From positions 1-49,201 of the forward strand of contig CAIUQE010000002.1 in assembly GCA_903901225.1 (NCBI GenBank): 49,201 bases of DNA. The letters are read 5' to 3'. Below are positions 8,825-48,199 of this stretch, one piece after another. The notes beneath the pieces were generated by a model. It was not told the origin of the DNA and did not search any database. It worked only from the letters and a program-made list of their open reading frames with translations. A program made the translations under genes and the position numbers. The stretch comes from Candidatus Omnitrophota bacterium. GTDB taxonomy: Bacteria; Omnitrophota; Gorgyraeia; Zapsychrales; Fredricksoniimonadaceae. Position 1 is the first letter of the stretch. Every line of letters starts with the position of its first letter.

Positions 8825-9790
8825 CTATTTCAAAATACCCTGATCAACAATTTCTTTAGCCAAGATCTTATTTATTTTTTCCCCCTCTTTTAAATGCGTG
8901 TCATCAAGAAAGTCTTCAGGATCAGAAAATTCTTTGTTATCCCACAGGTATATGTATTTTATTTTATTATTATGAAGGTAATCCTTTAATTTGGAGAAAT
9001 ATTCCCGCATCATATGATTTGCCTGGACCGCTGTTGGAAGAATAACAACAAATAAACCCAGATCGTTGGCTTTAGTAAGCGCGACAATATCTGGCAAGTA
9101 TGACGTGTTAAGTGCTTTATCAAAATCATCTGGAGATCTTAAACTTAAAGTATAATTTGTATAACCCTTGTTATTCTCATAACTCATCCTTTGTTCCTTA
9201 AAAACATGCCCGACATCAAGTGACGGGTTTATTTTTTCAACAAAAAAATGAACAAAGAAATTAAAGAACCCCCTCCCTTTGAAGGAATACATTTTCCATT
9301 TCCTAAGTACGCCCTGCTCCCAGGATGTTTTCATTGCTCCTAATTCTTTCCTATAGTGAGATGGTTCCTCACGATTCCCAAGCTGGCTTAGCACCTCCTC
9401 TGACATCATGGTGTTGTTAGCCCTTGTGAGCGCATCTGTAGCACACATGATACCAACAACAAAATTCTTGTGCCGGGCACTCGCGACCTGATTTTCCAAT
9501 ACTAACTGCCAGTAATCCGCTCCAGTCTTAACCTGGAACCATGGCAAGATCTTGTATTTCTTATGAGTCAATGACTGCAGTTCCATTTCCAGGGAACCGA
9601 TACTGATCCTTTCCGCCGCCGAACTCCCGAGCAGGATCATATCCGGCTTTTCTTCATCGATCATCTTACGAAACTTATAGCTGATGTTCGTGGAAGACGA
9701 AAAACATATAAAAAAATAATTTACTGACACCACCAACAATATGGCCGCCACGATCCACAGCTTATTAAAACCTGAAATAAATGAAATCAT
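8825..9790 (-). CDS. SGNH-hydrolase-fold membrane protein, DltD-like
   Basis: The 321-residue protein has one N-terminal helix (about 9-30) and a periplasmic SGNH-like domain. GSSAAERI (55-62) fits the block with the nucleophilic serine, and DDTHL near the C-terminus (Asp296, His299) fits the DxxH dyad. In Dlt-type systems the SGNH partner works with the MBOAT enzyme to move an acyl or aminoacyl group onto an extracytoplasmic polymer. It overlaps the MBOAT gene by 26 nt and is last in its operon. Overall sequence is diverged, so DltD-like is a role inference. A+T is higher than in the neighbouring atp genes. Confidence 0.65.
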   Translation of the reverse strand: MISFISGFNKLWIVAAILLVVSVNYFFICFSSSTNISYKFRKMIDEEKPDMILLGSSAAERISIGSLEMELQSLTHKKYKILPWFQVKTGADYWQLVLENQVASARHKNFVVGIMCATDALTRANNTMMSEEVLSQLGNREEPSHYRKELGAMKTSWEQGVLRKWKMYSFKGRGFFNFFVHFFVEKINPSLDVGHVFKEQRMSYENNKGYTNYTLSLRSPDDFDKALNTSYLPDIVALTKANDLGLFVVILPTAVQANHMMREYFSKLKDYLHNNKIKYIYLWDNKEFSDPEDFLDDTHLKEGEKINKILAKEIVDQGILK

Positions 9791-11225
9791 TCTGATTTAT
9801 TCCTGCGAATATCATTAAAATCAAGCCGGCCAAAGTGTATAAAAAGAATCTCAAACCATAAAACTCATACAAATCCCATTGTTGCCTGTCTTGCAACCAC
9901 TTCCACGCGAGAGAACACAATAACGGGATCGAATAAAAAAGGAACCCGATCAACAGCACCGTGACCAGATCCCGGTCCGCGAACGACGCCAGTTGCACCC
10001 TCGTGTGCCCCTCAGGCCCGACACGAACGATCTCATCCTTAACCCGCATCCATAAAAACCCCAAGGAAGGTATCCTGATCAACAAAAATCCTATGGTCAC
10101 GACTATCCACGTCACAAAAATAGCCATAGCATTCGTAAACAGATTCTCCTTCCAAAACAAATCGAGGACCGGCTTTAAAACAAATTGATACCCGATAATA
10201 AGGACCGCATAATAGATCCCCCATACCAGGTACTTCCATTCAGCGCCATGCCAGACCCCGACACATCCCCAGGAAACCAAGACAGCGATCGCGTACCCCA
10301 ACCCCAACGGCAATCTTGCAAGCTTGAAAACCAAGGGCAAAAACAAATAATCTTTCATCCATGAAGTTAGCGAAATATGCCACCTGTTCCAAAAATCCAT
10401 AACATTCTTGGCCAGGAATGGCTTGTTAAAATTATTTATTAACTCGAACCCCAATAATCTTGAAGACCCGCGCGCAAAATCAGTATACGCAGAAAAATCG
10501 GCATACAACTGGATCCCGAAACCCAATCCACCAGCGAGCAATAACCCTATCGAAGGCTTTTCAAACCGAAAGACCATGTATAAAATTGCCGCTAAATTGT
10601 CTGCAATAACCAGTTTCTTTACCAATCCCCATACAATAAGATCGATCCCGCTCATAAAATGACGGCCATCAAAGACCCGTTCCTTCTGGATCTGAACAAG
10701 TAAGTTAGTTGCCCTTTGAATAGGGCCTGCAATAAGCTTCGGAAAGAAAGCTATGAACAAGCTAAGATCAATAAATGATCTGGTGGGTTGAATAACTCCG
10801 CGATAAACATCAAAGGTGTAACTCAAAAGTTCAAATGTAAAAAATGAAATGCCAAGAGGCAGGATAATATTCAAATGAAGATGGTTGGCGTTAATATGCA
10901 AGCTGGCGAAAATGGGATCAAGCGACTTGATGAAAAAATTCATGTATTTGAAATAACATAACAAGCCTAAATTCCAGATTATGTTGAAATACAAATATAA
11001 ATCCCTGTGCCCGCCATCCTTGGCCGGGCTCAAACGCAATGCCGTAAAATACACCACCCCTGCAGAACCAATGATAAGCGATAAAAAACGCCAGTCCCAT
11101 GTCGCGTAAAAAATATAACTACACAGGAGAAAAAAAACATTCTGAGACCGGTGGTTGAGCCGCCAATACACAAGAACAACAACAGCAAGAAAGACAAAGT
11201 AACTTAATTGCGGAAAAATGATCAT
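9765..11225 (-). CDS. MBOAT acyltransferase (DltB/AlgI family)
   Basis: Polytopic membrane O-acyltransferase of 486 residues with about 11 hydrophobic segments. The family hallmarks are present: FFPKLIAGPIQR (160-171), DFWNRWHISLTSWMKDYLFLPL around His283, and GVWHGAEW with the invariant His326. Such enzymes pass an acyl group across the membrane from a carrier protein (DltB) or similar donor to a polysaccharide. The start overlaps the ligase stop as ATGA. Neighbouring carrier protein and ligase point to a DltB-like role rather than alginate acetylation. Confidence 0.9.
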   Translation of the reverse strand: MIIFPQLSYFVFLAVVVLVYWRLNHRSQNVFFLLCSYIFYATWDWRFLSLIIGSAGVVYFTALRLSPAKDGGHRDLYLYFNIIWNLGLLCYFKYMNFFIKSLDPIFASLHINANHLHLNIILPLGISFFTFELLSYTFDVYRGVIQPTRSFIDLSLFIAFFPKLIAGPIQRATNLLVQIQKERVFDGRHFMSGIDLIVWGLVKKLVIADNLAAILYMVFRFEKPSIGLLLAGGLGFGIQLYADFSAYTDFARGSSRLLGFELINNFNKPFLAKNVMDFWNRWHISLTSWMKDYLFLPLVFKLARLPLGLGYAIAVLVSWGCVGVWHGAEWKYLVWGIYYAVLIIGYQFVLKPVLDLFWKENLFTNAMAIFVTWIVVTIGFLLIRIPSLGFLWMRVKDEIVRVGPEGHTRVQLASFADRDLVTVLLIGFLFYSIPLLCSLAWKWLQDRQQWDLYEFYGLRFFLYTLAGLILMIFAGINQNDFIYFRF

Positions 11226-13441
11226 TCTCTGGTATTCCCCATGAACCAGGGCTTTTCAGAAGTGCCCGATTTGATCGAATGGATATAGATCGTGGGAAGG
11301 GGGGGGCTGATGATCCGATAGGCCGGGTCGTTGTGCGTAAAAAAAACATTCCCGACACCGTACCGGGCCACAACATCACGTTCCGCGCTCATGACTGCAA
11401 AATACTTCCTTGCCCCTGCTTCAACGTCTTGATGCATGCCCAGCCCTTTAGCCTGTTTCATGAACCGATCTTTCAAAGGGAAACACGCCCAAGCCTGTTG
11501 AAATTCCTGCGTGTCTAATTCTCGGAAAACATCATCAAGAACAAGCCCATGCCCGGACCAAATATCGCTTAAATAAACACATTCAAAATCCCTCTTTCGA
11601 CACTCATTTATGATCGCATTAAAATAATTTCTCGCTGTCGCCTCCGGGACAAGGTTGCATCGCCCGTGGATGTCAGCCAGAATCAATCGGATCCTGGCGA
11701 CCGGCTTGCCTGCGGCCTTGTTGATCTCATCCAGAAGCTTGCGTAAATTATCCAATACAGCCCCGTCATTCTCGTTGGCATCCTGCCGATAACCAACGCC
11801 CCAGAACCCCAAAAGATAAAAATGTTCACGGCTCAACAAAGCCGATTGAAGGATATCGACGATCGCATTAACATCCGGCGTTTTCGCCTTTCTGTAACGC
11901 GCCTTATCCAAAACCGCAACGATCTCGCGGCTTGTCTGACCTGTGACATATTCCTTGAGTTTGCGTAAATTAACCTTACCGACATCATTCTTGGGGAAAC
12001 ACCCGCAAAAAATAAATTCATCCGGGAAGTTGTGCTGTGACAATTTCTCTCGGGAGAAATCCAACACATGCTGCTCGGGATTATCAGCGCCCTCCTTCAA
12101 AATACACGCAGAAACAACCTTCTCCCCCAATATTTCGTCAGGCACGCCGAACGTGCACGACTCAGCAACAAAAGAACAACGCCCAATGACCACATCAATA
12201 TCCTCGGGGACGATCAACTGCCCCTTTCGCTTGATGATATTCTTGATCCTCCCGACGATAACAAGCTGTCCGTCTTGATCGATCAAGCCGACATCGCCGG
12301 TCCTGAGCCATCCATCCATAAAAACAGCTCTTGTTGCTTCAGCATTTCCCCAATACCCCTTCATGACAATATCGCCCTTAACGAGAACTTCACCACAACC
12401 CGGCGGCATGGCGTCTGAAAGGGAGAGCATGGCGGGATCAACGCGGAGCTCACAGCCAACAGGTATCCCTGCCGTATCATAGCGCTTCCGGGCATCCCGT
12501 GGCGTCATCGTCACCCACGTTGTCGTTTCCGTAAGACCATATCCCTGATAACATGGGACATGGAAACGATCTTCAAAATCCCTCCAAATGTTCGGTTTAA
12601 GCTGTGCTGTGCCAACAAGCGCATATTGCACTGAAGTAATATCTTTGCCCGCGCCCTCCGGATACAACGCAAGCAACGACGCCATAATTGATGGCGTTAC
12701 GCTAAGGACCTGTATCCTGTTATGCTCAACAATATTCCAAAGATTCCGGGCCAATATAAAACCGTAAACATCATCAATAAAAATATGCGCCTCGGCGAGA
12801 ATACACGCCAGCCCGGTGATCATCGGCGCATTGATCTGATAAAAAGGCAACATCGACAAAAATCTCTGCCCTTCTTTATAATCGTAAAATGAAGACAACT
12901 GCAGGGCCATCGCATAAAGATTCTTGTACGTCAACCCTACCCCCTTACTGTTGGTAGTTGTCCCTGATGTATAGATAATAAGCGCAACTCTCCCGTCAAT
13001 GTCTTCCTTATCAAAAAAGTCTTTTGAAAAACCATCCCCTCTGCCGCTTGCCAGACATAGCATATTCTTGCCATCCACGGGAACAACTTCAAAACCGCTC
13101 AAAATGCCCTTCAAATCTGCTTGGATTTCATCATAAAAAATAATTTTTGGCGCCAGCTGCTTCAAAATATTATTCAACTCATCAACATGCATATGAGGAT
13201 TCAGCGGCACAAGGGCGGCTTTCGTGGCCGCGCAGGCAAAGAACAAAGGAAAGAAAAATCCGGAATTAACGGTAAAATAAACAATTTTATCGCCTGATGC
13301 CACTGACCTGTTCCTGAGGAAAGATGCCAGGCTCGCACTGGCGTGATGCAGGTCGCCATAACTATAACTTCTTGCATTTTTCAGATCTGAAAGAAAAGTT
13401 CGATGCCCCGAGGGATGGCGTAAGAAGGGAAACTGGTTCAT
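11222..13441 (-). CDS. AMP-forming ligase with an unrecognised C-terminal domain
   Basis: Residues 1-500 form an ANL adenylation enzyme: YTSGTTTNSKG (157-167), YGLTETT (301-307), TGD (381-383), GRIK (397-400) and the catalytic lysine at about 489 in NDVGKVN. It probably activates a carboxylate as AMP ester and loads it on the adjacent carrier protein, like DltA; the substrate cannot be read. Residues from about 510 to 739 form a separate domain, with LLGFWGVGYR (543-552), LILADIHG (586-593) and YLSDIW (623-628), that I do not recognise. DltA has only about 500 residues, so the extra 230 are notable. The start overlaps the carrier gene as ATGA. Confidence 0.85.
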   Translation of the reverse strand: MNQFPFLRHPSGHRTFLSDLKNARSYSYGDLHHASASLASFLRNRSVASGDKIVYFTVNSGFFFPLFFACAATKAALVPLNPHMHVDELNNILKQLAPKIIFYDEIQADLKGILSGFEVVPVDGKNMLCLASGRGDGFSKDFFDKEDIDGRVALIIYTSGTTTNSKGVGLTYKNLYAMALQLSSFYDYKEGQRFLSMLPFYQINAPMITGLACILAEAHIFIDDVYGFILARNLWNIVEHNRIQVLSVTPSIMASLLALYPEGAGKDITSVQYALVGTAQLKPNIWRDFEDRFHVPCYQGYGLTETTTWVTMTPRDARKRYDTAGIPVGCELRVDPAMLSLSDAMPPGCGEVLVKGDIVMKGYWGNAEATRAVFMDGWLRTGDVGLIDQDGQLVIVGRIKNIIKRKGQLIVPEDIDVVIGRCSFVAESCTFGVPDEILGEKVVSACILKEGADNPEQHVLDFSREKLSQHNFPDEFIFCGCFPKNDVGKVNLRKLKEYVTGQTSREIVAVLDKARYRKAKTPDVNAIVDILQSALLSREHFYLLGFWGVGYRQDANENDGAVLDNLRKLLDEINKAAGKPVARIRLILADIHGRCNLVPEATARNYFNAIINECRKRDFECVYLSDIWSGHGLVLDDVFRELDTQEFQQAWACFPLKDRFMKQAKGLGMHQDVEAGARKYFAVMSAERDVVARYGVGNVFFTHNDPAYRIISPPLPTIYIHSIKSGTSEKPWFMGNTRE

Positions 13442-13689
13442 TTTTCACCCTGTCTGCGTGTGACAAAATAATCAAGCTTCTCTAAGGAATTGATCCTTTC
13501 ATTGGCCAGATCTGCGACATCGATGGTGATCTTGAATTCAGACTCTATCAAAGTAATGACTTTGATCAATTCGAATGAATCAAATATGTTTTTTTTAACG
13601 AAATCCTCTCCATCAGCGAGCTTTTGTATCAAGCGCGCCTTACTCTTGAAATTCTTCACCAATATTTCCCGGACTTTTTCTTTTACCAT
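13438..13689 (-). CDS. Acyl/peptidyl carrier protein (DltC-like)
   Basis: Eighty-three residues with the carrier four-helix pattern. FDSFELIKVITLIESEF carries the phosphopantetheine-bearing serine (Ser38) in the DSxE-type context. It precedes an adenylating enzyme, MBOAT and SGNH genes, so it is the likely shuttle for the activated group. ATG 13689 has no ribosome site of its own. It overlaps the stop of a 26-codon upstream frame, suggesting coupled translation. Confidence 0.85.
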   Translation of the reverse strand: MVKEKVREILVKNFKSKARLIQKLADGEDFVKKNIFDSFELIKVITLIESEFKITIDVADLANERINSLEKLDYFVTRRQGEK

Positions 13690-13763
13690 GTGATCATATC
13701 AATACAATCAAGGATCTTGTCCACGGAACAGCCTTTGATCAAACTGAACGCCGACATATTCAT
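13683..13763 (-). CDS. 26-codon upstream ORF coupled to the carrier gene
   Basis: The frame is ATG 13763 to TAA 13683-13685 and encodes MNMSAFSLIKGC plus 14 more residues. AAAAGGAAAACGGGG precedes it as a ribosome site, while the carrier gene has none. Its TAA overlaps the carrier ATG (ATGGTAA). It may be a leader peptide that loads ribosomes onto the operon, or the vestige of a longer gene, since the frame stays open about 20 codons further upstream. It does not resemble DltX. Confidence 0.4.
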   Translation of the reverse strand: MNMSAFSLIKGCSVDKILDCIDMITW

Positions 13764-13806
13764 CCCCGTTTTCCTTTTATAATGATCCTCAACCCTTATC
13801 TCCCGT

Positions 13807-13815
13807 ATTATAACA
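13807..13815 (-). promoter_or_regulatory. Extended -10 promoter of the dlt-like operon
   Basis: TGTTATAAT on minus gives a consensus TATAAT (plus 13807-13812) with an upstream TG. No good -35 is seen at the right spacing. Predicted transcripts start near 13800, some 37 nt before the 26-codon ORF. Confidence 0.5.
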
Positions 13816-14141
13816 CCGCGTGTGCCTTAAGCATGGCAACTGAAAAAGATCAGCCCCACTCGTCGTCCGTCATAGCCTTGGCTCAGATCTTTCTGATACC
13901 GACCTTCAAAACACCGGCACGCAGAATATAAGAATTCAAGAATCATGATAATACATCAAACTATATAAGTCATTTAAAAATGTGTGAATGAACGATATAA
14001 AACACTTTCAAGCTTGAGCTGAAGACCCCAGCACAAAACCGACAATTTATGACCGCTTTCCCAGTCACATCTTCAATAATGCCGTGTTGGTAAAAAATTA
14101 TCCACGATGATGCGATGTTTACGGCAACAAAGAATCCATCC
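13816..14141. other. Intergenic region without recognisable gene
   Basis: AT-rich sequence between the dlt-like operon and the glnB terminator. No ORF with a ribosome site, RNA family or repeat was recognised. Confidence 0.5.
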
Positions 14142-14177
14142 AAAAAAAAAGGGAAGGGGTGTTAAAACCCCTTCCCC
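14142..14177 (-). terminator. Rho-independent terminator after glnB
   Basis: GGGAAGGGG (14151-14159) pairs perfectly with CCCCTTCCC (14168-14176) around an 8-nt loop. On the minus strand nine T residues follow (plus A run 14142-14150). It ends the amtB-glnB unit. Confidence 0.92.
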
Positions 14178-14248
14178 TCAAGATTGACCATTTTACTTTC
14201 ATGCGAACCGTATCGTCTACGTATTGACACGGTTGAAAACCAGGCTTA

Positions 14249-46354: not shown

Positions 46355-47380
46355 TTATTTATCCTCTTTCAACGAACGCACAAGCTCCTCGGGCAACACC
46401 GCGGCCGCGCCGATCTTGGCCACCACGACACCCGCGGCATGATTGGCAATATCCGCGGCCTGGCGCTTCGTGGCCCCCGAGGCAATGGCCAGCGCGAACA
46501 CGGAGATCACCGTATCGCCCGCGCCCGAAACATCGAACACTTCACGCGCCTTCGTCGGGATATGATGATGCGGCTTGCCGGCCTCGAACAGGCACATGCC
46601 GTCTTCGCCGAGCGTCACCAACAGCGACTCGATCCCCAGATATTTCAACAGGCCTTCACCGGCCTCGATGATCACTTTCATGCTGTTCAGCTTCGTCGAT
46701 CCGATACCAAGCCCGCGACGGGTATCCGGCTCCAGGCTTTTGAGCGCGTTCTCGGTCTCGGTACGGTTGGGCGTGATCGACGTCACCGGGCCGTAAAATT
46801 TCAGGTGCTCGACCTTGGGGTCGACGATCACAGGGATATGTTTCTGGCGGCACATGGCCGTGATATCCGCCACCAGCGCGGCCTGCACCACCCCTTTGCC
46901 GTAATCGGAAATGATGATGGCATCAAAATGATGGAAATTCCTTTTGATGAAAGGCGCGACAGTCTTGCGGTAAAAAAGATTGTCCGGATCGTCGGAAACA
47001 GTCTCGCGGTCAATACGCACCACCTGCTGGCGATGGGCAATGATGCGGGTTTTGAGGATGGTCTCCACCCGCTTGTCGGTCAGGACGCCTTCCGTGCGGA
47101 TCTGACGCTCGGCAAGGACCTTCTTCAAAAGATCCCCTTCCTTGTCGTCGCCCACCCGCCCGACCAGCGTGACCTTCGCGCCCAGGCTGCTCAAATTATT
47201 CGCCACGTTCGCCGCGCCACCCGGCGTGTGGAACAGCTGTTCCTGCAGGACCACGGGCACAGGGGCTTCCGGCGAAATGCGGCTGACGGAGCCTTTGATA
47301 TACTGGTCAAGGATAAGATCCCCGATAACAAGGACATGCTTCCTGCTGAAAGCATTCAGTATCCCCGCGTATTTGTGCAT
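46355..47380 (-). CDS. D-beta-heptose 7-phosphate kinase (HldE/RfaE1 kinase domain)
   Basis: PfkB-family kinase of 341 residues making heptose-1,7-bisphosphate for the LPS core. TPGGAANVANNLSSLGA and the anion hole DVSGAGDTVISVFALA are conserved. The adenylyltransferase half found in E. coli HldE is absent, so that activity must be a separate gene elsewhere. First gene of the Kdo/heptose/Lpt operon, directly behind the promoter. Confidence 0.93.
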   Translation of the reverse strand: MHKYAGILNAFSRKHVLVIGDLILDQYIKGSVSRISPEAPVPVVLQEQLFHTPGGAANVANNLSSLGAKVTLVGRVGDDKEGDLLKKVLAERQIRTEGVLTDKRVETILKTRIIAHRQQVVRIDRETVSDDPDNLFYRKTVAPFIKRNFHHFDAIIISDYGKGVVQAALVADITAMCRQKHIPVIVDPKVEHLKFYGPVTSITPNRTETENALKSLEPDTRRGLGIGSTKLNSMKVIIEAGEGLLKYLGIESLLVTLGEDGMCLFEAGKPHHHIPTKAREVFDVSGAGDTVISVFALAIASGATKRQAADIANHAAGVVVAKIGAAAVLPEELVRSLKEDK

Positions 47381-47421
47381 AAACCCTCGGTTAATAATAT
47401 ATTAGACTTATAGGAGCCGTT

Positions 47422-47450
47422 ATACTAACACGCTTCATTTATGGTGTCAA
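47422..47450 (-). promoter_or_regulatory. Promoter of the Kdo/Lpt operon
   Basis: Perfect TTGACA (plus 47445-47450), a 17-nt spacer and TAGTAT (plus 47422-47427), 42 nt before ATG 47380. Confidence 0.75.
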
Positions 47451-47463
47451 CGAGGAGAGGGGC

Positions 47464-47530
47464 AATCCAAAGGACATGCATAACAGGGGCACATGTACCA
47501 AAGCCGTCCTTTGGATTTGGCACGTGCCCC
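47464..47530. repeat. Interlocked inverted repeats (REP-like)
   Basis: A perfect 12-bp repeat, AATCCAAAGGAC (47464-47475) with GTCCTTTGGATT (47506-47517), interlocks with GGGGCACATG (47486-47495) against its near-complement at 47521-47530 (one mismatch). The arms alternate, so the two stems would form a pseudoknot or be mutually exclusive. The location between the toxin-antitoxin stop and the hldE promoter suits a dispersed palindromic element. Confidence 0.7.
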
Positions 47531-47556
47531 CCGCTTTGAATCTCTATTGCATTCGA

Positions 47557-47862
47557 TCAAACCAAGGCTGCCACTTGATCAAAGCTTTCATCAGGGATCA
47601 ACATGACATGACAACGAACGGCCTTCGCGGCCTTAATAATGGAAGAAATCTTCGGATCATGGGCGGTGCTCTCGGTCCTGGCCACATGAGGTTGAAGAAC
47701 TTTCATTTTCAAAGCAAGATCACGTTGAGAAAGACTTCTCCTTCTGCGCATCACGGCCAGCTGGGTCGATAACGGCAATTCAGCAAAAACTTTTGCATGA
47801 GCTTTCGCCGCCGCTGGGTTTGTAGCCAATATTTCCTGTAAATGTTTGTCAAATGTTTTCAT
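47557..47862 (-). CDS. higA: HigA-type antitoxin
   Basis: HTH protein of 101 residues with an XRE helix-turn-helix at about 38-90 (MRRRRSLSQRDLALKMKVLQPHVARTES). It overlaps the toxin gene by 14 nt and follows it, the toxin-first order of HigBA. It should neutralise HigB and repress the operon through the palindrome upstream of higB. Confidence 0.85.
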   Translation of the reverse strand: MKTFDKHLQEILATNPAAAKAHAKVFAELPLSTQLAVMRRRRSLSQRDLALKMKVLQPHVARTESTAHDPKISSIIKAAKAVRCHVMLIPDESFDQVAALV

Positions 47863-48199
47863 TTTTCAATACCTCCTTAAATCTCTTCTTTGCTAAAACC
47901 AAATCGTCTTTAGGCGTCTTGGCACTTTTCTTCTCAATACTATGTAAAAGCCAGGCATTGCCTTGATGCACGGCAAAGAATATTCGATATTGAATACCGT
48001 TATACAGCCGTTTTAACTCCCAGATCTTATCCCCTAGCGGTCGAACTGTGATCTGCTGCGATCTGAGCCCTTCGGCCCCCAATACTTCAAGATCAACAGC
48101 TAGACGAGCAAATGCTTCCGGTCGTTCCCTTACCAAAGAAATAAGGTATTCTTTTACAGGACCGCTGGTGCCTTCTGGATAATAAATGATATCAATCAT
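47849..48199 (-). CDS. higB: HigB/RelE-superfamily toxin
   Basis: The 116-residue phage Gp49/HigB-like protein contains DKIWELKRLYNGIQYRIFFAVHQGNAWLLHSIEKKSAKTPKD, typical of ribosome-dependent mRNA interferases. ATG 48199 (MIDIIYYPEG) is preferred because the longer frame to 48220 would start inside the operator. It is co-translated with higA. Target and activity are inferred from family. Confidence 0.85.
   Translation of the reverse strand: MIDIIYYPEGTSGPVKEYLISLVRERPEAFARLAVDLEVLGAEGLRSQQITVRPLGDKIWELKRLYNGIQYRIFFAVHQGNAWLLHSIEKKSAKTPKDDLVLAKKRFKEVLKNENI

What the first reader, a model, noticed from the sequence alone, without database searches (positions are those of the whole stretch)
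8825..13815. Dlt-like aminoacyl or acyl transfer operon in an LPS-bearing bacterium
Four genes, joined by 4- to 26-nt overlaps, supply every part of a D-alanylation-type pathway: adenylating ligase, carrier with Ser38, MBOAT with His283/His326, and an SGNH partner with Ser56/Asp296/His299. In Gram-positives Dlt decorates teichoic acids. This window shows Kdo, heptose and Lpt genes, so the acceptor is more likely LPS, a capsule or another envelope glycan. The operon is visibly AT-richer than the atp operon next to it, hinting at transfer. Function is inferred; parts are seen directly.
Basis: partly seen in the sequence, partly recalled or inferred. Interest (0 to 1): 0.8.

Follow-up and report, generated by a model that had tools for sequence, protein, structure and literature searches.

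The report
Dlt-like operon with isonitrile-synthase-like domain
An uncultured bacterium (Omnitrophota) carries an acquired four-gene machine that activates an unknown acid, carries it across the cell membrane and probably attaches it to a sugar on the cell surface; its activating enzyme is fused to a distant relative of the enzymes that make isonitriles, so the attached group may be a capped amino acid rather than the D-alanine first suggested.

Summary
The four genes are real and overlapping. Carrier Ser38, MBOAT His283/His326 and SGNH Asp296/His299 are confirmed; the conserved SGNH serine is Ser57, not Ser56. The operon is an insertion: in a same-genus genome atpB and glnK are adjacent, and its G+C is 37-48% against about 57% around it. 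"Dlt-like" holds as chemistry but not as membership: the ligase is acyl-CoA-ligase type without the FDxS amine-binding motif, no DltD or separate DltX is found, and the MBOAT itself ends in the acyl-shuttle motif FIYFRF. Two weak AlphaFold models of it both match isonitrile synthase PIsnA best in the PDB, and a bridging domain in another Omnitrophota's giant protein links it to Pfam DIT1_PvcA (25.8 bits from both profiles; best of 5,000 shuffles 8.3 and 7.1). It lacks the family's canonical motifs, so its chemistry is open. Three of 384 sampled Omnitrophota carry the fusion. Best reading: the domain caps an amino acid's nitrogen, and the product is activated, exported and esterified onto an envelope glycan, much as fungal CrmA products are esterified to mannitol. 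New variant of a known kind; acyl group and acceptor unproven.

The parts
13438..13689 (-). Acyl carrier protein, 83 aa, phosphopantetheine site Ser38 in DSF
   Evidence: PF00550 20.4 bits (cut-off 20.8); DSF invariant in the G066 and G018 homologues; genome encodes an AcpS-family phosphopantetheinyl transferase
11933..13441 (-). Ligase, adenylating part (about residues 1-503): acyl-CoA-ligase type, no FDxS amine-binding motif
   Evidence: PF00501 200 bits, PF13193 36 bits; best NCBIfam matches FadD-type; best PDB matches FadD13 and oxalyl-CoA synthetase; motifs
11222..11932 (-). Ligase, fused C-terminal domain (about residues 504-739): divergent relative of the DIT1/PvcA isonitrile-synthase family
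   Evidence: Foldseek best hit PIsnA for two models; bridging domain L127; joint alignment
9765..11225 (-). MBOAT acyltransferase, 486 aa, His283 and His326
   Evidence: PF03062 57 bits; DltB model 165 bits, cut-off 375; PDB DltB E 4e-25
9768..9785 (-). C-terminal acyl-shuttle hexapeptide FIYFRF (Tyr483) of the MBOAT
   Evidence: fits FXYXXF described for DltX and PatA in PMC12148441; FIYFKF in G066 and, in another frame, in G018
8825..9790 (-). SGNH acyltransferase partner with an N-terminal hydrophobic segment; Ser57, Asp296, His299
   Evidence: Invariant residues in A2; profile finds MBOAT-adjacent SGNH/DUF1574 proteins
14140..14180 (-). Probable intrinsic terminator downstream of glnK, separating the operon from glnK
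   Evidence: G+C-rich hairpin followed by a run of T on the minus strand (sequence, fold)

Best explanation
This is a horizontally acquired, carrier-dependent MBOAT-SGNH operon that decorates an envelope glycan with an unusual acyl group. Proposed steps: (1) the ligase's C-terminal domain, a divergent member of the DIT1/PvcA superfamily, converts the amine of an amino acid into an isonitrile, an N-formyl or a similar capped form (inferred); (2) the adjoining adenylating part, which has no amine-binding motif, activates the carboxyl group and loads it on Ser38 of the carrier (inferred from families); (3) the MBOAT, using His326, moves the acyl group to its own C-terminal Tyr483 in FIYFRF and so across the membrane (from published PatA and Dlt chemistry); (4) the SGNH protein, Ser57/Asp296/His299, passes it to a hydroxyl of a periplasmic or surface glycan (inferred). 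Shown by tools: the parts, their residues, the insertion, and the homology of the fused domain. Not shown: the acyl group, the reaction of the fused domain, and the acceptor.
For: Four overlapping genes. Fused domain conserved in all three loci, 53-57% identical to the window's. Two AlphaFold models from different members both have PIsnA as best PDB hit (E 1.3e-5 and 9.3e-4). A domain in a 37,731-aa frame of genome G094 passes the Pfam DIT1_PvcA cut-off (34.3 against 26.4 bits) and matches the fused-domain profile over positions 6-210 of 216; both profiles score it 25.8 bits against best shuffles of 8.3 and 7.1 in 5,000. With that sequence added, profile-profile comparison with PvcA gives E 8.7e-5 in the expected register, against 0.47 for CDPS. 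An acid-type ligase without FDxS fits an amine already capped. FIYFRF shuttle motif (PMC12148441). Precedent: fungal CrmA joins isocyanide synthase, adenylation, thiolation and transferase domains and is required for mannitol esters derived from valine isocyanide (PMC9381783).
Against: The fused domain itself does not reach the PF05141 cut-off and lacks the FPxKSPN, SDGxxF and SIHPQ motifs of the family, so isonitrile formation may be lost. The structure models are of low confidence (mean pLDDT 63 and 55). Profile-profile comparison without the bridge was not significant. One of the three loci (G066) has no homologue of this SGNH protein. No dioxygenase gene, which accompanies many isonitrile synthases, is in the operon.
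Confidence: 0.4

Rival explanations
1. Carrier-dependent envelope acylation with an ordinary fatty, hydroxy or aryl acid; the fused PvcA-like domain has lost catalysis or does something unrelated (binding, regulation, or another reaction on the acid).
For: Ligase best matches are fatty-acyl and aryl-CoA ligases; canonical motifs of the PvcA family are missing; other Omnitrophota have ligase-carrier-MBOAT-SGNH clusters with acyl-CoA-ligase-type enzymes and no such domain.
Against: The fused domain is well conserved (53-57%, long invariant blocks such as LILADIHGRCNLVPEA and PPLPTIYIHSIK) across different families of the phylum, which argues for a kept activity.
Confidence: 0.3
2. One reading: a Dlt-type pathway that esterifies D-alanine or another free amino acid onto LPS or another glycan.
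For: All four functional classes are present; the MBOAT's only solved relatives found by sequence are DltB and its only NCBIfam match is DltB. A clear amino-acid version exists in another Omnitrophota (L092).
Against: Amino-acid adenylation model 153 bits against a cut-off of 317, no FDxS motif; no DltD match in the genome; the 235-residue extra domain is unexplained.
Confidence: 0.13
3. The product is a small acylated lipid or diffusible metabolite, as with fungal CrmA esters, rather than a decorated envelope polymer.
For: The G066 locus keeps carrier, ligase and MBOAT but no homologue of this SGNH protein, and has MFS/HlyD/OEP export genes upstream; CrmA-dependent esters are soluble mannitol derivatives.
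Against: The window and G018 loci have SGNH proteins (G018 two intact copies and a fragment), which in characterised MBOAT-SGNH systems act on envelope polymers (PMC12148441).
Confidence: 0.12

Closest known systems
DltXABCD teichoic-acid D-alanylation (Gram-positive bacteria)
   Same: Adenylating ligase, carrier, MBOAT and SGNH protein; Tyr in an FxYxxF hexapeptide expected to carry the acyl group across the membrane (PMC12148441).
   Different: Ligase is acid-type and fused to another domain; no separate DltX (the motif is on the MBOAT); SGNH protein is not DltD (PF04914 negative in the genome); host has LPS genes.
PatA/PatB and AlgI/AlgJ MBOAT-SGNH acetyltransferases
   Same: MBOAT with a C-terminal FIYFxF-type motif and a separate SGNH partner.
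   Different: Those are thought to use an acyl-CoA donor and need no ligase or carrier (PMC12148441); here a ligase and carrier are in the operon.
CrmA, fungal isocyanide synthase-NRPS-like enzyme (PMC9381783, PMC5974471)
   Same: An isocyanide-synthase-family domain joined to an adenylating domain, with a carrier and acyl transfer to a polyol hydroxyl. This is a likeness of function; common descent of the whole arrangement was not tested.
   Different: Reported only in fungi in the 2018 survey; acyl transfer there is not by MBOAT and SGNH proteins; the domain here is far more divergent.
PvcA/IsnA isonitrile synthases and yeast Dit1 (PF05141)
   Same: Remote homology, shown through the G094 bridging domain; PIsnA is the best structural match.
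   Different: Below the Pfam cut-off; lacks FPxKSPN, SDGxxF and SIHPQ; shorter; fused to a ligase.
Omnitrophota ligase-carrier-MBOAT-SGNH clusters (L087, L092, L106, L114)
   Same: Same four functional classes in one neighbourhood.
   Different: Ligases only 23-26% identical to this one, of amino-acid type (L092) or nearest to the exosortase-associated acyl-CoA-ligase model (L087, L106, L114), none with the fused domain.

Membership tests
Dlt (D-alanylation) system | DltA-type amino-acid adenylating ligase | tested here: not met
   TIGR01733 153 bits, cut-off 317; DltA not in the best 25 families; no FDxS motif, present in control L092
Dlt (D-alanylation) system | Carrier with a phosphopantetheine-site serine | tested here: met
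   Ser38 in DSF, invariant in three loci; PF00550 20.4 bits against cut-off 20.8; the modification itself was not tested
Dlt (D-alanylation) system | DltB equivalog | tested here: not met
   TIGR04091 165 bits, cut-off 375
Dlt (D-alanylation) system | Separate DltX microprotein | tested here: not met
   [quoted passage not shown] no room for a further gene in the overlapping operon
Dlt (D-alanylation) system | DltD (PF04914) | tested here: not met
   No match in the genome; controls ring
Dlt (D-alanylation) system | D-Ala esters on teichoic acid | not testable with these tools
   Needs chemistry on cells
MBOAT-SGNH acyltransferase pairs | MBOAT with the conserved histidines | tested here: met
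   PF03062 57 bits; His283, His326
MBOAT-SGNH acyltransferase pairs | C-terminal FxYxxF acyl-shuttle motif | tested here: met
   FIYFRF, Tyr483; 33 of 36 MBOAT frames in the sampled loci end in such a motif
MBOAT-SGNH acyltransferase pairs | SGNH partner with Ser and DxxH | tested here: met
   Ser57, Asp296, His299 invariant in A2; profile link to MBOAT-adjacent SGNH proteins. No homologue in genome G066
DIT1_PvcA (PF05141) isonitrile synthases | Score above the Pfam cut-off | tested here: not met
   No match for the ligase or its domain
DIT1_PvcA (PF05141) isonitrile synthases | Common descent of the domain | tested here: met
   Bridging domain L127 passes PF05141 and matches the fused domain; PIsnA best structural hit twice
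DIT1_PvcA (PF05141) isonitrile synthases | Motifs FPxKSPN, SDGxxF, SIHPQ seen in the eight members fetched | tested here: not met
   Joint alignment: YWG-VG, AD-IHGRCN and no SIHPQ
DIT1_PvcA (PF05141) isonitrile synthases | Isonitrile formation from an amino acid and ribulose-5-phosphate | not testable with these tools
   Needs an enzyme assay
Cyclodipeptide synthases | Profile match and catalytic serine motif (GxSxxNS in most members fetched) | tested here: not met
   CDPS profile no better than shuffles, profile-profile E 0.47; invariant GxWGVG in place of the serine motif

The most novel reading that the evidence does not exclude
A bacterial system that makes an isocyano-acyl (or N-formyl-aminoacyl) group on a ligase/isonitrile-synthase-like fusion and attaches it as an ester to the cell envelope, giving the cell a metal-binding or reactive surface coat. 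It would be a bacterial counterpart of the fungal isocyanide synthase-NRPS logic, coupled to an MBOAT-SGNH exporter.
Probability: 0.2. Interest if true: 0.88.

Novelty: new variant of a known kind. Interest (0 to 1): 0.6.

Why it matters
MBOAT-SGNH pairs are known mostly for acetyl groups, and for D-alanine through Dlt. This operon suggests that the carrier-fed branch can deliver chemically unusual groups made by a domain fused to the ligase. If the group is an isonitrile or another N-capped amino acid, it would join natural-product chemistry to envelope decoration in a candidate phylum known almost only from genomes, and it gives a directly testable protein of 739 aa. It also extends the DIT1/PvcA superfamily to a remote branch that profile libraries miss.

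Tried and rejected
Cyclodipeptide synthase as the identity of the fused domain: among the next-best structural hits, but the CDPS profile and serine motif do not fit. Direct HH comparison of the three-sequence domain profile with PvcA: not significant and out of register. The PvcA profile on the fused domains was only suggestive: 2, 15 and 23 of 1,000 shuffles scored as high. A reverse top hit among 576 frames was out of register and is not used. Pfam, NCBIfam and PDB sequence searches with the domain gave nothing convincing. Scans for more members: genome contigs gave only the same two loci, viral contigs and plasmids none, 27 genomes of the family of G066 none beyond the two. Weak hits of the domain profile in other Omnitrophota at E 0.009-0.1 were judged noise. 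PF05141 hits in G254 and G294 (E about 0.007) were judged chance; the G294 frame reads like a uridylate kinase. G018's shorter MBOAT first looked like loss of the shuttle motif; the motif is there in another frame, so it is a frameshift, real or of assembly. The PvcA structure paper is not held, so active-site residues could not be checked against it. No structure prediction was made for the SGNH protein: both jobs went to the fused domain.

Full report
WHAT IS THERE. The window is contig C2 of a 2.38-Mb assembly, and the only close relatives of its ligase domain in the genome collection are two MAGs titled Omnitrophota/Omnitrophica; both also appear in this genome's own phylum. [quoted passage not shown] They sit between glnK-amt and the atp operon. 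A G+C-rich hairpin with a T run follows glnK, so the operon is probably transcribed by itself. In a genome of the same genus (G116), atpB (83% identical) and glnK (87%) are about 220 bp apart with nothing of the operon between them.

RESIDUES. The SGNH serine conserved in the homologues is Ser57. The SGNH protein has no significant Pfam match by itself, but a three-sequence profile of it, run on some 40 MBOAT neighbourhoods of the phylum, ranks highly the frames that directly follow MBOAT genes, with the serine block or the DxxH block aligned in the best hits. Those proteins match GDSL lipase or DUF1574 weakly. The SGNH assignment therefore stands.

The ligase is longer than its two Pfam domains, which end near residue 490. 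The remaining part, about residues 504-739, matches nothing convincing in Pfam, NCBIfam or PDB sequences. It is conserved (53-57%) in two other Omnitrophota loci, G066 and G018, in each fused to the same kind of ligase and flanked by carrier and MBOAT. AlphaFold models made from two different members are of low confidence (pLDDT 63 and 55), yet both have the isonitrile synthase PIsnA as best match among 350,542 PDB chains (E 1.3e-5 and 9.3e-4). Cyclodipeptide synthases and class-I aminoacyl-tRNA synthetases follow in the first list; CDPSs are known to be derived from the latter fold (PMC2922099).

THE BRIDGE. Direct sequence comparison with eight isonitrile synthases fetched from plasmids was only suggestive or not significant. 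A search of 384 Omnitrophota for Pfam DIT1_PvcA then gave one hit above the cut-off, inside a 37,731-aa open frame of genome G094 (hmmscan 34.3 bits, cut-off 26.4). This sequence was found without reference to the fused domain, and the fused-domain profile matches it over almost its whole length, positions 6-210 of 216. Scored alone, it gets 25.8 bits from the fused-domain profile and 25.8 bits from the PvcA profile; the best of 5,000 shuffles get 8.3 and 7.1. Adding it to the profile lifts the comparison with PvcA to E 8.7e-5 in the register expected by eye, with CDPS at 0.47. I put common descent of the fused domain with DIT1/PvcA at about 0.85. A joint alignment shows that the FPxKSPN, SDGxxF and SIHPQ motifs of the family are not kept. 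Isonitrile formation can therefore not be assumed. Yeast Dit1, in the same family, is reported not to be an isocyanide synthase and most likely makes N-formyl tyrosine (PMC7345447).

WHAT THE LIGASE ACTIVATES. Its nearest relatives are acyl-CoA and aryl-CoA ligases. It scores 153 bits on the amino-acid adenylation model (cut-off 317) and has no FDxS motif, whose Asp binds the substrate amine in amino-acid-activating enzymes (from general knowledge of the family). The control is internal: the ligase of L092 (genome G271), which also stands beside a carrier, an MBOAT and an SGNH gene, passes that model at 330 bits and has FDLS. So aminoacyl versions exist in the phylum, and this does not look like one. 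An acid-type ligase fused to a family that modifies amino-acid nitrogens is coherent: the substrate would be an amino acid whose amine is already blocked. That link is inference.

HOW IT SHOULD WORK. In Dlt, the MBOAT moves D-Ala from the carrier to a tyrosine in DltX; in PatA the same kind of hexapeptide is the MBOAT's own C-terminus (PMC12148441). This MBOAT ends in FIYFRF, and 33 of 36 MBOAT frames in the sampled loci end in such a motif. The expected route is ligase, carrier Ser38, MBOAT His326, Tyr483, SGNH Ser57, and then a glycan hydroxyl. The genome has an AcpS-family enzyme to modify the carrier. The window also encodes LptB, LptC, a KdsD-type isomerase and a heptose kinase, so LPS is a possible acceptor, but nothing ties the operon to it.

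CLOSEST PRECEDENT. Fungal CrmA combines isocyanide synthase, adenylation, thiolation and transferase domains and is required for mannitol esters derived from valine isocyanide; the authors leave open which acyltransferase makes the ester (PMC9381783). In a 2018 survey such isocyanide synthase-NRPS proteins were found only in fungi (PMC5974471). The Omnitrophota operon has a similar functional set with the transfer step given to a membrane MBOAT-SGNH pair. This is a likeness of logic, not membership.

DISTRIBUTION. The fusion occurs in 3 of 384 sampled Omnitrophota and in 2 of 27 genomes of the family of G066. G018 has two intact SGNH homologues and a fragment upstream of the carrier; G066 has none but has a PP-loop-like gene and export genes upstream. 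The core is thus carrier, fused ligase and MBOAT, with a variable last step.

VERDICT. Observation confirmed with one residue corrected; interpretation partly supported. It is a new variant of carrier-fed MBOAT-SGNH systems. The acyl group, the reaction of the fused domain and the acceptor remain open.

Noticed in passing
L127:2641-3480 (genome G094, contig C3 about 47140-47979): A DIT1_PvcA (isonitrile-synthase-family) domain lies inside a 37,731-aa open frame, one of the giant genes of Omnitrophota. It passes the Pfam cut-off and was the bridge used here; no other Pfam domain was found in the 2,000 residues around it.
   Followed up: partly
L092 (G271:C565:21500-28992): An amino-acid-type (DltA-like) ligase, carrier, MBOAT and SGNH gene in a row in another Omnitrophota: a better candidate for true aminoacyl envelope transfer than the window's operon.
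   Followed up: partly
L087 and L114 (G053, G027): MBOAT, SGNH, a gene of similar start (CVLPxxFPxVxxDNEGVC) , carrier and exosortase-associated acyl-CoA-ligase-type gene in the same order in two genomes of different families.
   Followed up: partly
L006:8253-9647 (G018): The MBOAT gene is frameshifted near its end, so that the FIYFKF motif falls in another frame; it could be decay or an assembly error.
   Followed up: partly
L006:14913-15161 (G018): A third, broken copy of the SGNH gene beside two intact ones, suggesting duplication and decay.
   Followed up: no
L005:7526-8374 (G066): A PP-loop-like (SGGVDS) gene without a clear family just upstream of the carrier; it may add a further modification.
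   Followed up: no
G131:C27:21966-22160: Another very long open frame (9,346 aa) met while searching; not studied.
   Followed up: no
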